Source: a virus
Virus record (IMG/VR): IMGVR_UViG_3300020000_000042
Location: 1 to 37,801 of that record
Reading direction: 5' to 3' (one strand)
Length of the DNA stretch: 37,801 nucleotides
The notes beneath the pieces are model-generated. The model did not search any database, was not told the DNA's origin, and was given only the letters and a program-made list of their open reading frames with translations. The position numbers and the translations under genes are program-made. Numbering within the stretch: position 1 is the stretch's first letter; each line of letters begins with the position of its first letter. Below are positions 1-37,801 of the stretch, piece after piece.

Positions 1-104
1 GCAATCAGGACGTGGGCGGCAATCAGGACGTGGGCGGCAATCAGGACGTGGGCGGCTATCAGTGGGTGCGCGGCAATCAGGACGTGGGCGACTATCAGGA
101 CGTG
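1..104 (+). repeat. 18-bp tandem repeats, left-end copy
   Basis: Five full 18-bp units and one partial unit of the form [G/C]GC G[G/A]C [A/T]AT CAG [GAC/TGG] GTG. The order is partial GNQDV, GGNQDV, GGNQDV, GGYQWV, RGNQDV, GDYQDV. From base 12 on it is identical to 37676-37801. Bases 1-11 differ from 37665-37675, because the partial first unit is NQDV-type here but YQWV-type at the right end. Confidence 0.95.
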
Positions 105-338
105 CGATATATTTATTTGCATCTCTATTGCAAATATCATTTTCGTATAGACCGTGAATCGAATGAAATTAAAATCGGATGTGTTTCTAAAACTTCCGAT
201 GAATGGAAGGTATTTTTCGATCAAAAAGAGACTATTAAAATGACTCCCGATGATCGCAATTACAAAAAATTGGCATTGGCGTTGCCAATAGCGGTAGCTA
301 TGCGTGATTTACTTATCGGTATGAACGACAAAAATTAA
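1..338 (+). CDS. Hexapeptide-repeat protein, 3' part (continues from 37415 across the circular junction)
   Basis: This is the downstream part of one gene that starts at 37415 and crosses the ends of the window. Bases 1-104 are tandem 18-bp units encoding GGNQDV, GGYQWV, RGNQDV and GDYQDV. They are followed by a unique C-terminal region (RYIYLHLYCKYHF to GMNDKN) that ends at 338. Joining 37415-37801 to 138-338 gives one reading frame of about 195 residues. The GTG at 12 is open but sits inside the repeats, so it is not a credible start. Regular six-residue repeats with conserved V and Q suggest a beta-solenoid or similar stacked fold, which is an inference. I do not recognise a named family. 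It precedes recT in the early unit. Confidence 0.75.
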   Translation, partial: NQDVGGNQDVGGNQDVGGYQWVRGNQDVGDYQDVRYIYLHLYCKYHFRIDRESNEIKIGCVSKTSDEWKVFFDQKETIKMTPDDRNYKKLALALPIAVAMRDLLIGMNDKN

Positions 339-378: not shown

Positions 379-1362
379 ATGGAACCAACAACATTAGCTA
401 TAACTCAAAAGGAATTTTACAATACTATCCGCCCGATGTGGATAGACCAATCTGGTTTAGATGAATCAGCATTCGCCAGGGAAATTTCTTTCGCGGTTCA
501 ACACGCCACAAAAAATCCTTATCTTCAAAAATGTACCTCTAATTCGGTTCTTCGTGCTGTAATGAACGTGGCACAAATTGGACTGACGCTTAACCCTGTT
601 TCAAAATATGCTTATTTAATTCCCAGATACAACGGACAGAGTAAGGAACTAGAATGTGTTTTGGAACCTTCATACATTGGACTCGCAAAACTTCTTACTG
701 ATTCTGGTTCGGTTACATCGATCGAATGTCATTTGATTTATCAGGGTGATTTGATAAAAGTAGATATGGCAAGCGAACAGAAAATACTTAATCACATGCC
801 ATACTTTTTGAATAACAAAGAGAAAGGAGGAATACTTGGGGTTTATTCGATTGGTATTTTGCTAGATGGAAGCAAGCATGTTGAGATGATGTCATTCATT
901 GAACTCAATGAGATACGTGATCGTAGCGAATCCTATAAGGCTTTCAAAGAGGGTAAAATCAAATCTACTACATGGGTAACTGATGAGGGCGAGATGTGTC
1001 GTAAAACAGTTATCAAAAGACACTCTAAATATTTGCCTAAATCCGAGAAGACCATTAAATTAGAAAGAGCAATCGATCTCGATAATGAAACCAACGGGTT
1101 TAAAGAGCCAATGGATTACGGTATGCTACAGTTCCTTGAGACCTCTATTGATCGATCAACTATTGACCACGATAGGAAAGCAAAATTAAAAATCGATATG
1201 AGTAAATGGGAATTCAAATCAGATGCTTACGAACTAATGAAAGAGCTGGGCGAATCGATACCACTCATGGGAACAATGGCAACCCCTCACTCAGTTAAAG
1301 AACAAGGCGAAGCAATAAGAAACGCAATGGATAGAGAGGATTTTAAAGAACGTAAGAAATGA
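379..1362 (+). CDS. recT: RecT-family single-strand annealing protein
   Basis: A 327-residue protein resembling phage RecT annealases, which pair complementary single strands during recombination-dependent replication and repair. The N-terminal half carries the family-like stretch GLTLNPVSKYAYLIPR (about residues 72-87), followed by LEPSYIGLAKL and, further on, GEMCRKTVIKRHSKYLP (about 205-221), typical of RecT. The length fits the family (about 270-330). The C-terminal 80 residues are charged and look poorly conserved. The stop overlaps the next start (ATG at 1359), suggesting translational coupling. No partner exonuclease of the RecE or lambda Exo type was recognised nearby. Confidence 0.9.
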   Translation: MEPTTLAITQKEFYNTIRPMWIDQSGLDESAFAREISFAVQHATKNPYLQKCTSNSVLRAVMNVAQIGLTLNPVSKYAYLIPRYNGQSKELECVLEPSYIGLAKLLTDSGSVTSIECHLIYQGDLIKVDMASEQKILNHMPYFLNNKEKGGILGVYSIGILLDGSKHVEMMSFIELNEIRDRSESYKAFKEGKIKSTTWVTDEGEMCRKTVIKRHSKYLPKSEKTIKLERAIDLDNETNGFKEPMDYGMLQFLETSIDRSTIDHDRKAKLKIDMSKWEFKSDAYELMKELGESIPLMGTMATPHSVKEQGEAIRNAMDREDFKERKK

Positions 1363-3791: not shown

Positions 3792-4556
3792 ATGGGAAAT
3801 ATTTCTTCAATTCAATGGACTGATGCCACATGGAATATAGCGCGTGGATGCACGAAGGTCGATGAAGATTGTAAATACTGCTACATGTATCGCGACTCAT
3901 TCGATGGTACACGTTACAATCCTTTACAAATTGTCCGTACAAAAACCGTTTTCAATTTGCCGTTAAAATTGAAAGAGCCGTCTTTGATATTCACTTCATC
4001 ATTGACCGACTTCTTTCATCCGGCAATTGATAGTTACAGAAATGAGGCATGGGATATTATCCGTAAATGCCCACAACATACATTCCAGATTTTAACTAAA
4101 AGACCTGAGCTAATACTTGACCACTTACCGAGCGATTGGGGCGAAGGATGGGATAATGTTTGGCTTGGCGCAAGTGTTGGGAGTCCGAAAGGAATGCAAC
4201 GGGTTTACGACTTATTGAAAATTCAAACCAAAGTAAGATTTCTTTCAATGGAGCCATTGCATGAGCGCGTAGATATGAACATTGACATTACCGACTTATG
4301 CAAACTAAATTGGGTTATCATCGGTGGAGAAAGTGGAAATGAAAATGGTAAATACAAATACCGTCCATGCAAAATAGAATGGATTGAAGGGTTGATAAAA
4401 AATTTTACTCCAACTACATCAATCTTTGTCAAACAACTTGGAACGTATCTCGCTAAGGAAATGAATTTGAAAGACCGTCACGGGGGCGATATGTCCGAGT
4501 GGCCTAAACATTTACAAATTAGGCAAATGCCTATTAATTTTAATACCAAATTTTGA
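3792..4556 (+). CDS. DUF5131 / phage Gp37-Gp68 family protein, copy 1
   Basis: A 254-residue protein of the phage Gp37/Gp68 family (DUF5131). It begins with the family signature IQWTDATWN..RGCTKVDEDCKYCY, giving C20-X6-C27-X2-C30, a triple-cysteine motif like that of radical SAM iron-sulfur proteins. Other family landmarks are FTSSLTDFFHPAID, FQILTKRPE, WLGASVG, RFLSMEPL, WVIIGGESG and the C-terminal HLQIRQMP. The reaction and substrate are not established to my knowledge. A second copy lies at 35793-36596 on the other strand. This gene is preceded by a short gap and followed by a promoter-like region. Confidence 0.88.
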   Translation: MGNISSIQWTDATWNIARGCTKVDEDCKYCYMYRDSFDGTRYNPLQIVRTKTVFNLPLKLKEPSLIFTSSLTDFFHPAIDSYRNEAWDIIRKCPQHTFQILTKRPELILDHLPSDWGEGWDNVWLGASVGSPKGMQRVYDLLKIQTKVRFLSMEPLHERVDMNIDITDLCKLNWVIIGGESGNENGKYKYRPCKIEWIEGLIKNFTPTTSIFVKQLGTYLAKEMNLKDRHGGDMSEWPKHLQIRQMPINFNTKF

Positions 4557-6684: not shown

Positions 6685-6812
6685 GAGCGATGGCTTGCAG
6701 AAGCGTGGGTTTGTGGCCATGTGTGCGAAGGTTTGCGGGTGGCCTCCGTGCCGGGGCGCACTTGTTCGTGGGGCAAAATATGGCACATAATGAACGTGGG
6801 TATATGCAGTGC
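6685..6812 (+). repeat. attC-like element A (right half only)
   Basis: The stretch from 6658 to 6885 has no convincing gene. It contains a block related to elements B-D: the 60 bases at 6731-6790 are identical to 9420-9479 in element D, ending in GGCACATAA, then an outer box GTATATGCAG (6800-6809). No matching left arm (GCATATAC...GTTATGTG) was found upstream, so it seems truncated. It lies directly 5' of the cytosine methyltransferase gene. Confidence 0.65.
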
Positions 6813-7752: not shown

Positions 7753-7838
7753 ACCGATATACTCGTGGCTCTTGGCAATGCTTAGGACGCGCGTTGAATG
7801 TGTGGCATTGGCAAGTGCCACGCCTACGGGGCTGCATT

Positions 7839-9300: not shown

Positions 9301-9496
9301 AGCATATACACGTTGTTATGTGACGTTTTTTGCAGTGCGATGGGTCAAGTGCGCAATGTGTGCGAGGGAAAAAACAGCACTGGCACATACGTTTGGTATG
9401 TGATTCACTTTCCGGTGCTGTTTGCGGGTGGCCTCCGTGCCGGGGCGCACTTGTTCGTGGGGCAAAATATGGCACATAACAATTGGCTATACGCCA
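9301..9496 (+). repeat. attC-like element D
   Basis: The 9220-9527 stretch has no convincing gene and is mostly this inverted repeat of about 195 bp. The left arm GCATATACACGTTGTTATGTGAC (9302-9324) in two parts (GCATATAC and TTGTTATGTG) is mirrored by GGCACATAACAA (9471-9482) and GGCTATACGC (9485-9494). Inside, AAGTGCGC pairs with GCGCACTT, AACAGCACTGG with CCGGTGCTGTT, and CACATAC with GTATGTG at the tip, so nearly the whole element can fold into one long hairpin. It shares 60 identical bases with element A. Confidence 0.68.
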
Positions 9497-35792: not shown

Positions 35793-36596
35793 TCACATTA
35801 AATAAAACTGTCTAATTTGTAAATCTTCTGGGATAGATTGAATTTTATCAATTTGTTTGAAGAAATATGGAATCCCAAATTCTTTGCATTGATCCCGCAT
35901 TGATCTAGCCCACGCTAAATCAAATGGTCTTTTACCGTGACCGCTTTCACCGCCTTGAATAATCCAGTCGATTGAAGTAAAGTTGTAAACAATATCTGAT
36001 TTGTTATCGTTGTTCTGAATTACTCCATTCAAGTGAACCCAATCAAGTTGGGGTTCGATACTGAAAAACTTTTTCCCCTTCAGTTTCATTATTTGTGTTC
36101 CAAGAGTCAACAAAGTTTCAAGGTTTACAATTGAAGTGCCATACATCACGTTTATTTGTGGCTTATCAAGCCATTCAGCCGGAACATATTTATGAATGTT
36201 GCTTGGTCGTTTAGTCAATAACAAAAACAATAGGTTTGGGTAAAGCCCCATGCTTATTTGAGTGAATAATTCCTGTCTTAAATCATCGGTATTTTCGAAA
36301 TGATCAACTGGATTAAGTAATGGCATTGGTTTTTCGAAAATATCCATCATTGAGCCAACAAAAACACGGTGAATTTCTCCGGCCTGTTCTGCCTTTCGTT
36401 GATATTTAGCTAAGTCCTTCCAAACTGACTTTATCATTCTCCTTGGAACATCTTTTCCCCATAGTGGATTTCCACCATCGTAACGGTGAGAAAATGCTTT
36501 TGCATAACAGTGGTCACATCCTTCGTGAACTTCTGTACAACCCCACCATAAATTAGCGGTATGATATGTCCATTCTATTTTTGAATTTTCGGCCAT
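35793..36596 (-). CDS. DUF5131 / phage Gp37-Gp68 family protein, copy 2
   Basis: A 267-residue protein of the same family as the gene at 3792. It has IEWTYHTANLWWGCTEVHEGCDHCYA, with cysteines at 20, 27 and 30 in the same C-X6-C-X2-C spacing, then VFVGSMMDIFEKP, LLFLLLTKRPSNI, YGTSIVN, KFFSIEPQLDWV, WIIQGGESGHGKRPF and the C-terminal DLQIRQFYLM. The two copies are clearly diverged, so this is not a recent duplication. The gene is flanked by 20-bp direct repeats. Function unknown. Confidence 0.88.
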   Translation of the reverse strand: MAENSKIEWTYHTANLWWGCTEVHEGCDHCYAKAFSHRYDGGNPLWGKDVPRRMIKSVWKDLAKYQRKAEQAGEIHRVFVGSMMDIFEKPMPLLNPVDHFENTDDLRQELFTQISMGLYPNLLFLLLTKRPSNIHKYVPAEWLDKPQINVMYGTSIVNLETLLTLGTQIMKLKGKKFFSIEPQLDWVHLNGVIQNNDNKSDIVYNFTSIDWIIQGGESGHGKRPFDLAWARSMRDQCKEFGIPYFFKQIDKIQSIPEDLQIRQFYLM

Positions 36597-36843: not shown

Positions 36844-36875
36844 CTTGCGTAGTATTGCGCGGGTGTGTAGGTTTG
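36844..36875 (+). promoter_or_regulatory. Rightward early promoter
   Basis: CTTG (36844-36847) is followed after 20 bases by TAGGTTTG (36868-36875), a perfect TAnnTTTG. The start codon of the first rightward gene is 24 bases downstream. This is the best-formed promoter in the window and would drive the early unit through the circular junction. Confidence 0.65.
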
Positions 36876-36899: not shown

Positions 36900-37121
36900 A
36901 TGATAACTTATAGAAACTTCAACATCGAAAAAGGGGATTATGGATGGAATTATACCCATGTAAATTATGATGGCCCCGAAGATACTCGCATTGGTACTGC
37001 AAAAACTTTTGCGAACGCAATGTCAGAAGTAGATGAAATGATATATCTACTTGAATCAGGTGAATTGAAAGTCTATAGGCCAATGGAAGCTTGGTCAGGT
37101 GGAATAGCTGATAATCATTAA
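36900..37121 (+). CDS. Hypothetical early protein (73 residues)
   Basis: First gene after the rightward promoter. It encodes an aromatic and acidic protein (FNIEKGDYGWNYTHVNYDGPED, then FANAMSEVDEMIYLLESGEL). First early genes often act against the host, but no motif is recognised. Confidence 0.7.
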   Translation: MITYRNFNIEKGDYGWNYTHVNYDGPEDTRIGTAKTFANAMSEVDEMIYLLESGELKVYRPMEAWSGGIADNH

Positions 37122-37146: not shown

Positions 37147-37401
37147 ATGAGCTATCCTGACCCAACAGCAAGAACAATCGAACCGAGATTTCACCTAGAG
37201 CGAATCTACAGCAGAATATTCGACAAAGAAGGAAATGAAATGCCCTGCGTTATCTCTTATTGGCTTTCAGAAAATGAAATCAGAGAAGTAAAAGTGTTAA
37301 TTAAAGATACTGATTTTTCAGACTTCAATTATGATGTAAGAGTGTGTGTTTCCAGGCAACATCCAAATATTGACATCATTGGAGAAATCGAAAGAATATA
37401 A
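37147..37401 (+). CDS. Hypothetical early protein (84 residues)
   Basis: An 84-residue protein, charged and beta-like (RFHLERIYSRIFDKEGNEMPCVISYWL, VRVCVSRQHPNIDIIGEIERI). 25 bases follow the first early gene. No family recognised. Confidence 0.7.
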   Translation: MSYPDPTARTIEPRFHLERIYSRIFDKEGNEMPCVISYWLSENEIREVKVLIKDTDFSDFNYDVRVCVSRQHPNIDIIGEIERI

Positions 37402-37414
37402 AATAACCCACAAT

Positions 37415-37801
37415 ATGAATAATAAAATAATAAACGGCATTGAATATCTAGTTTATGAATCAGGAATGATTCTAAACGATGAAACAAAATCTTATTATTT
37501 CGAAAACGATCTAATTTATGAGGGAGATATAAAATGCCTTCATTTCTATGCCGTCAAAAATGTAAACCTGGGCGGCAATCAGGACGTGGGCGACAATCAG
37601 TGGGTGGGCGGCAATCAGTGGGTGCGCGGCTATCAGGACGTGCGCGGCTATCAGTACGTGGGCGGCTATCAGTGGGTGGGCGGCAATCAGGACGTGGGCG
37701 GCAATCAGGACGTGGGCGGCTATCAGTGGGTGCGCGGCAATCAGGACGTGGGCGACTATCAGGACGTGCGATATATTTATTTGCATCTCTATTGCAAATA
37801 T
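37415..37801 (+). CDS. Hexapeptide-repeat protein, 5' part (continues to 338)
   Basis: ATG at 37415 opens the gene that runs off the end of the window in frame. The first 52 residues (MNNKIINGIEYLVYESGMIL, then FENDLIYEGDIKCLHFYAV) form a short unique domain. From residue 53 come eleven 6-residue repeats (37571-37768): GGNQDV, GDNQWV, GGNQWV, RGYQDV, RGYQYV, GGYQWV, GGNQDV, GGNQDV, GGYQWV, RGNQDV, GDYQDV, then RYIYL. The rest lies at 138-338. Every difference between units changes an amino acid and none is silent. Repeats are GC-rich, unlike the surrounding gene. Function unknown; a surface-exposed or binding repeat scaffold is possible. Confidence 0.8.
   Translation, partial: MNNKIINGIEYLVYESGMILNDETKSYYFENDLIYEGDIKCLHFYAVKNVNLGGNQDVGDNQWVGGNQWVRGYQDVRGYQYVGGYQWVGGNQDVGGNQDVGGYQWVRGNQDVGDYQDVRYIYLHLYCKY
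37571..37768 (+). repeat. 18-bp tandem repeats, right-end copy (11 units)
   Basis: Eleven in-frame 18-bp units varying only at [G/C]GC, G[G/A]C, [A/T]AT and GAC/TGG/TAC. The last six units correspond to those at bases 1-104, but the unit before GGNQDV-GGNQDV-GGYQWV is YQWV-type here and NQDV-type there. Confidence 0.95.
37676..37801. repeat. Terminal direct repeat (126 bp) showing circular or permuted ends
   Basis: Bases 37676-37801 are identical to 12-137. Extending the alignment 11 bases further (37665-37675 with 1-11) brings 4 mismatches in one repeat unit. The overlap means coordinate 1 is an arbitrary break in a circular or terminally redundant genome of about 37.66 kb. Confidence 0.9.

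What the first reader, a model, noticed from the sequence alone, without database searches (positions are those of the whole stretch)
37571..37768. Hexapeptide-repeat gene in which every difference between units is amino-acid-changing
Eleven 18-bp units differ at four codons only: GGC/CGC, GGC/GAC, AAT/TAT and GAC/TGG/TAC. All differences are non-synonymous; third positions are otherwise constant. The variants occur in many combinations, as if a few substitutions were shuffled by unequal exchange and then kept by selection. The tract is GC-rich in an AT-rich gene near the start of the early unit. This looks like a diversifying repeat protein of unknown function.
Basis: partly seen in the sequence, partly recalled or inferred. 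Interest (0 to 1): 0.7.

Follow-up and report, generated by a model that had tools for sequence, protein, structure and literature searches.

The report
Shuffled repeat rod in phage protein
A phage gene in an early-type gene cluster encodes a rod built from six-residue repeats; its core residues hardly change, while three surface residues flip between two or three options in near-random order, and related phages show the same pattern with different DNA spelling, so evolution appears to keep the rod's surface varied.

Summary
In detail: eleven 18-bp units, 37571-37768, differing at four codons, all amino-acid-changing. The gene is larger than stated. It starts at 37415, runs off the contig end and finishes at 1-338. 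The two ends overlap by 137 bp with four mismatches, all at variable codons: a circular genome cut inside its own variable array. Taken alone, the all-nonsynonymous pattern is weak evidence, because only five variant codons are involved. Relatives make it strong. About a dozen other phage contigs carry hexapeptide arrays of the form xGxQxV. Positions 2, 4 and 6 are nearly fixed; positions 1, 3 and 5 switch between a few residues (G/R, N/Y, D/Y; or K/E, D/Y, R/I) in an order indistinguishable from random. Silent bases are nearly constant within an array but differ between phages. Collagen-like arrays from the same scan behave oppositely. A relative folds confidently as a right-handed beta-solenoid. 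Its C-terminal cap is shared with phage pentapeptide-repeat proteins. Two phages 99.6% identical have 23 and 12 units. Best reading: an early phage beta-solenoid whose surface is reshuffled by recombination and kept mixed by selection. Its target is unknown; an anti-host role is inference.

The parts
37415..37801 (+). 5' part of the repeat gene: ATG, N-terminal region MNNKIINGIEYLVYESGMILNDETKSYYFENDLIYEGDIKCLHFYAVKNVNL, repeat array, start of the cap; continues at 1-338
   Evidence: homologous to L018:2932-3588 (71% identity)
37571..37768 (+). array of eleven 18-bp units [G/R][G/D][N/Y]Q[D/W/Y]V
1..104 (+). the same array seen from the other contig end; differs from the 3' end copy only at variable codons (positions 3, 9, 10, 11)
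105..338 (+). C-terminal cap domain (CKY...KIGC..KT..EW..FF) and stop codon
   Evidence: homologous to caps of L018, L011, L014 and of pentapeptide-repeat proteins L027, L029-L031, L033, L034
37665..37801 (+). terminal overlap with 1-137 (133 of 137 identical, the last 126 exact): circular genome opened inside the array
36845..36875 (+). Bacteroidota-type promoter-like site TTG-N20-TAGGTTTG, 24 bp before the first ATG of the operon; one match in the window where 1.1 is expected by chance, so its position is the main support
   Evidence: consensus from own knowledge
36900..37121 (+). small upstream gene of the same operon, no family match
37147..37401 (+). second small upstream gene, no family match
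379..1362 (+). recT, ssDNA-annealing recombinase, directly downstream of the repeat gene
   Evidence: Pfam RecT 7.1e-31, phrog_148 2.8e-51

Best explanation
The gene encodes an early phage protein folded as a right-handed beta-solenoid, one 18-bp unit per hexapeptide strand. Positions 2 (G), 4 (Q) and 6 (V) build the turn and core and are nearly fixed; positions 1, 3 and 5 face outward and switch between two or three residues, giving a mosaic surface. The array grows, shrinks and reshuffles by recombination between units (block duplication shown in a relative; help from the adjacent RecT is inferred). Selection keeps the surface positions mixed while the silent backbone is homogenised within each phage. 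A C-terminal cap shared with phage pentapeptide-repeat proteins closes the rod. Most likely the variable surface binds a host target that differs between hosts, as a host-takeover or anti-defence protein; this last step is inference.
For: Shown: gene anatomy and contig overlap. Relatives L018, L011, L014, L009, L010, L045, L053, L056, L063, L067/L072, L068 with the same plan. Silent bases nearly constant inside arrays but different between phages (V is GTG, GTC or GTT), while G/R, N/Y, D/Y recur: within arrays 22 nonsynonymous to 3 synonymous variant types, between arrays about 8 silent consensus changes and no fixed replacement (1 used for caution), Fisher p = 7e-5 (the divergence count is my own parsimony count over five arrays). 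piN above piS in 13 of 13 selected arrays, opposite in most collagen-like controls. Surface-site frequencies intermediate, order random at lags 1-7, nearly free combination (89 distinct units against 98 expected). Array change: L009 against L010. Fold: AlphaFold2 model of L018, mean pLDDT 85.9, a strand Q-x-V every six residues; matches to right-handed beta-helices including Thermus bactofilin 6rib, Z 11.0, rmsd 2.4 A over 99 residues. Cap homology: hhalign E 9.4e-18. Location beside recT.
Against: No binding partner, expression or phenotype is known. The window protein itself gave a poor single-sequence model (pLDDT 32); the fold rests on its relative. Inside/outside assignment is read from strand positions, not from coordinates. 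The arrays are related, so the tests are not fully independent. L010, L076 and L093 do not show piN above piS. Foldseek alone gave no match below E 0.001.
Confidence: 0.5

Rival explanations
1. Structural tolerance only: any mixture of a few residues is acceptable on the solenoid surface, or a mixture is needed for stability and solubility (avoiding like-charge ladders or fibril formation). Arrays are young and homogenised, and no variable binding target exists.
For: Order is random at every lag and not conserved between phages; net charge of the hexapeptide arrays is near zero (between -9 and +6); alternatives often pair a charged residue with a neutral or oppositely charged one (K/E, D/Y, R/I).
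Against: If stacked like charges were avoided, unlike residues should alternate at some lag; none was seen, including lag 3. Simple tolerance does not easily explain why the same few residues recur, largely by single-base changes at the same three codons and at intermediate frequency, in lineages with different silent backbones.
Confidence: 0.27
2. A DNA-level element: the GC-rich 18-bp repeats act as iterons, an annealing site for RecT or a recombination hotspot, and coding is secondary.
For: Arrays are richer in GC than their flanks in all 13 arrays; third bases are nearly constant inside arrays; the gene abuts recT.
Against: Silent bases differ between phages while the protein pattern is kept; frame, start and cap are conserved; a strand appears every six residues in the model.
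Confidence: 0.08
3. Programmed diversification by a diversity-generating retroelement or a similar site-directed mutator.
For: Variation is confined to defined codons at intermediate frequency.
Against: No reverse transcriptase in nine phage records while three control genomes ring (records may be incomplete); changes are G/C, A/T, G/T and A/G at first or second codon bases, not adenine-specific.
Confidence: 0.04
4. Assembly artefact: the order of units, or their variation, is created by short-read assembly of a repeat.
For: The contig breaks in the array; in G009 (L067/L072) the array looks misassembled, with a frame break.
Against: Complete in-frame arrays with flanks exist in L018, L009, L010, L011, L014, L045, L053 and L063; the end mismatches fall only on variable codons.
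Confidence: 0.05

Closest known systems
Phage pentapeptide-repeat proteins (Pfam PF00805) carrying the KIGC..T..EW cap (L027, L029-L031, L033, L034)
   Same: Homologous C-terminal cap; repeats form a rod (established for pentapeptide repeats, own knowledge); arrays also show nearly fixed third bases and variable residues, piN above piS
   Different: Repeat is six residues xGxQxV, not A(D/N)LxX; no PF00805 match in the window
Bactofilins (right-handed beta-helix, polymer-forming cytoskeletal proteins)
   Same: Model of L018 superposes on Thermus bactofilin 6rib at 2.4 A over 99 residues
   Different: No Pfam bactofilin hit; has a C-terminal cap; repeat units nearly identical at DNA level and variable at inferred surface sites
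Left-handed beta-helix hexapeptide transferases such as LpxA
   Same: Six-residue period with V or I at one position; weak sequence matches only (LpxA E 0.071 in NCBIfam, 0.016-0.14 in PDB)
   Different: VIA-align rows have rmsd near 11-12 A against 2-3 A for right-handed helices; no catalytic domain recognised
PHROG families phrog_5070 and phrog_7964 (function unknown)
   Same: Match the repeat region of all six members tested
   Different: phrog_5070 also rings in six cellular control genomes, so this may be generic repeat similarity
Variable tandem-repeat proteins generally (VNTR genes, surface antigens; own knowledge)
   Same: Unit number and order change by recombination
   Different: A phage gene beside recT; nearly all variation confined to three sites with two or three states each

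Membership tests
Pentapeptide-repeat protein | Tandem A(D/N)LxX repeats (PF00805) | tested here: not met
   No PF00805 match in G000; repeat period is six residues
Pentapeptide-repeat protein | KIGC cap domain found in a subset of phage members (not a defining feature of the whole family) | tested here: met
Bactofilin | Pfam bactofilin signature | tested here: not met
   No such hit in Pfam scans of window and relatives at E up to 1
Bactofilin | Right-handed beta-helix core | tested here: met
   AlphaFold2 model of relative L018, 6rib Z 11.0, rmsd 2.4 A; a model, not a solved structure
Bactofilin | Forms filaments | not testable with these tools
   Needs purified protein
Left-handed beta-helix hexapeptide transferase | Left-handed helix | tested here: inconclusive
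   LbH rows align only at rmsd about 11-12 A
Diversity-generating retroelement target | Reverse transcriptase nearby | tested here: not met
   PF00078 absent from nine records, present in three controls; records may be incomplete
Diversity-generating retroelement target | Adenine-specific substitution | tested here: not met
   Variant bases include G/C and G/T
Diversity-generating retroelement target | Invariant template repeat | not tested
   No search for a template copy was made beyond the own-record pattern search, which found only the array itself
DNA-mimic protein (Qnr/MfpA-like) | Strong negative surface charge | tested here: not met
   Net charge of hexapeptide arrays -9 to +6, window -5 over 11 units; counted from sequence, not from a surface

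The most novel reading that the evidence does not exclude
A class of phage genes acts as a natural combinatorial library: beta-solenoid rods in which three surface positions per hexapeptide each take one of two or three residues in random order, so one phage population carries many versions of a binding surface. The diversity is generated by recombination between units, without a reverse transcriptase, and serves to keep pace with host defences. The same principle would extend to capped pentapeptide and Cys-tripeptide arrays in related phages.
Probability: 0.25. Interest if true: 0.85.

Novelty: new variant of a known kind. Interest (0 to 1): 0.62.

Why it matters
If right, phages own a second way, besides retroelement-driven mutagenesis, to make large numbers of protein surfaces from one gene, and they use it in a gene beside their recombination genes instead of on the tail. 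The small alphabet (G/R, N/Y, D/Y/W; K/E, R/I) on a regular rod is simple enough to read, to synthesise in defined versions and to test for targets. It also explains why such phage contigs tend to break at one gene.

Tried and rejected
tblastn and blastn of the protein, of its flanking domains and of the array against the phage and plasmid collections: no match; the low-complexity filter probably hides the repeats themselves. Seven hits of the strict pattern in bacterial genomes: on inspection unrelated frames or low-complexity stretches, judged spurious. A 54-bp (three-unit) higher-order period, suggested by TRF: only L018 shows it, pooled arrays do not. Neighbour avoidance or alternation between stacked units: none. 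DNA mimicry by charge: not met. DGR: no reverse transcriptase. Cap search with the wide alignment A4 found nothing; with the narrow one, A1, it worked. Single-sequence fold of the window's own part: uninformative. The cap has no solved relative by sequence; no fold of the cap alone was predicted. Literature searches for hexapeptide or solenoid repeats in phages under diversifying selection: nothing relevant seen in the lists; no paper was read in full. Arrays L010, L076 and L093 were left out of the 13-array sign test (L010 as a near-duplicate of L009, the others as divergent or doubtful members) and do not fit it.

Full report
What is there. The window is an IMG/VR virus record of 37,801 bases. 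At 37571-37768 lie eleven 18-bp units, each read as a hexapeptide [G/R][G/D][N/Y]Q[D/W/Y]V; the variants are GGC/CGC, GGC/GAC, AAT/TAT and GAC/TGG/TAC, and CAG and GTG never change. The gene is however cut by the contig ends: it starts at 37415, leaves the window at 37801 and resumes at position 1, ending at 338. The two ends overlap by 137 bp, the last 126 exact, with mismatches only at positions 3 and 9-11, the N/Y and D/W codons. The downstream flank occurs only at these two places. The simplest reading is a circular genome whose assembly broke inside the array because two versions of the array were present in the sample. Another phage, G009 (loci L067 and L072), is broken in the same way, with array at both ends and a 78-bp exact overlap, and the arrays of L068 and L015 also lie at contig or locus ends.

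How strong the pattern is on its own. About a quarter of random single-base changes in this unit would be silent. With five variant codons, finding none silent has a chance of roughly 0.25.

Relatives. DNA-pattern scans of viral contigs found hexapeptide arrays of the form xGxQxV in about a dozen other phages: L018 (closest; cap 62% and N-terminal part 71% identical in protein), L011, L014, L009/L010, L045, L053, L056, L063, L067/L072, L068, and the more divergent L013/L016, L017 and L015. Each array has its own fixed silent backbone: valine is GTG in the window, L014 and L009, GTC in L018, GTT in L011, L045, L053 and L063. Inside arrays the same alternatives recur: G/R, N/Y and D/Y in one group, K/E, D/Y and R/I in another, each usually one base apart with the third base unchanged.

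Selection. For five arrays I counted 22 nonsynonymous and 3 synonymous variant types within arrays, against about eight silent and no fixed replacement difference between array consensuses (one used for caution): Fisher p = 7e-5 (the between-array count is a manual parsimony count and the arrays are related, so this is a guide, not a clean probability). piN exceeded piS in 13 of 13 selected arrays, mean 0.133 against 0.030, whereas collagen-like G-x-Q arrays picked up by the same scan mostly had piS well above piN. Three arrays left out of that set, L010, L076 and L093, do not fit. Frequencies of the alternatives are intermediate in nearly every array, the order of units cannot be told from shuffles at lags 1 to 7, and the three sites combine almost freely (89 distinct units, 98 expected). 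Pentapeptide arrays with the same cap show much the same contrast.

Turnover. L009 and L010 are 99.6% and 99.5% identical over 5.7 kb and 3.1 kb on either side of the array, yet carry 23 and 12 units. Written as letters L009 is ABBCCDBEFGF-ABBCDBEFGF-HI, a block duplication whose exact 7-unit core is not reached in 2000 shuffles, and L010 is ABJABBEFGHGI. Arrays thus change by gain and loss of blocks, and probably by exchange of single units. In the window the gene is followed directly by recT, a plausible helper; that link is inference.

Fold. AlphaFold2 on L018 with nine related rows gave mean pLDDT 85.9 with a short strand Q-x-V every six residues through the array and a helical C-terminal region. 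VIA-align on Foldseek's candidates puts right-handed beta-helices at low rmsd (4wa0 Z 13.6, 2.2 A; bactofilin 6rib Z 11.0, 2.4 A over 99 residues), while left-handed hexapeptide transferases reach similar Z only at rmsd near 11-12 A. V and Q on one side of each strand imply that position 5 points outward, and positions 1 and 3 sit at the turns; I infer that all three are exposed.

Cap and context. The C-terminal domain (KIGC..KT..EW..FF) is found again in phage pentapeptide-repeat proteins, profile comparison E 9.4e-18. So one cap is joined to two kinds of rod. Neighbouring genes in the relatives include ParB-like and AAA_24 proteins (L009) and DUF932 (L018), fitting an early region. A promoter-like site TTG-N20-TAGGTTTG of Bacteroidota type (consensus from own knowledge) stands 24 bp before the first gene of the window's operon.

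How it most likely works. Shown: unit structure, relatives, silent constancy within and change between arrays, unit gain and loss, cap homology. Modelled: right-handed beta-solenoid. Inferred: early expression (from position), exposure of positions 1, 3 and 5, selection for a mixed surface, RecT involvement, and binding to a host factor in host takeover or counter-defence. The main rival is that the mixture is merely tolerated or stabilises the rod; random order fits that as well as it fits diversification. The recurrence of the same residue choices in lineages with different silent backbones favours active maintenance.

Novelty. Repeat rods, capped pentapeptide proteins and recombining tandem repeats are known. 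I found no description of phage hexapeptide solenoids whose surface sites behave as two-state symbols in random order (within the library searched). I rate it a new variant of a known kind.

Noticed in passing
L011:3838-4581: A second variable array in the same phage: Cys-x-x tripeptides (CRG, CSD, CWN) with a TTHCRAGWV cap, matching phrog_31265, a profile whose N-terminal part matches a pentapeptide-repeat protein (L034). Caps and repeat types seem to be swapped between phage rods.
   Followed up: partly
L027, L029, L030, L031, L033, L034 (match regions): Pentapeptide arrays of capped phage proteins also keep third bases nearly fixed and vary N/D and R/S/Y or similar sets at two sites.
   Followed up: partly
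L016:8600-10860 and L013:3100-4700: Three to five tandem paralogous genes, each with its own hexapeptide array and no KIGC cap.
   Followed up: no
window 6731-6790 and 9420-9479: A GC-rich 60-nt stretch repeated exactly, 2.7 kb apart, with another 47-nt pair (89%) at 7836 and 9299, in stretches that hold no clear gene.
   Followed up: no
window 3792-4556 and 35793-36596: Two diverged proteins that look like phage Gp37/Gp68 (DUF5131) in one genome; recognised by eye from the sequence, not searched.
   Followed up: no
window 37571-37768 and arrays in L011, L014, L017, L053: Arrays are far richer in GC than their AT-rich surroundings, in the window also at third positions (5 of 6 consensus codons against 2.0 expected); cause unknown, perhaps biased conversion or foreign origin.
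   Followed up: partly
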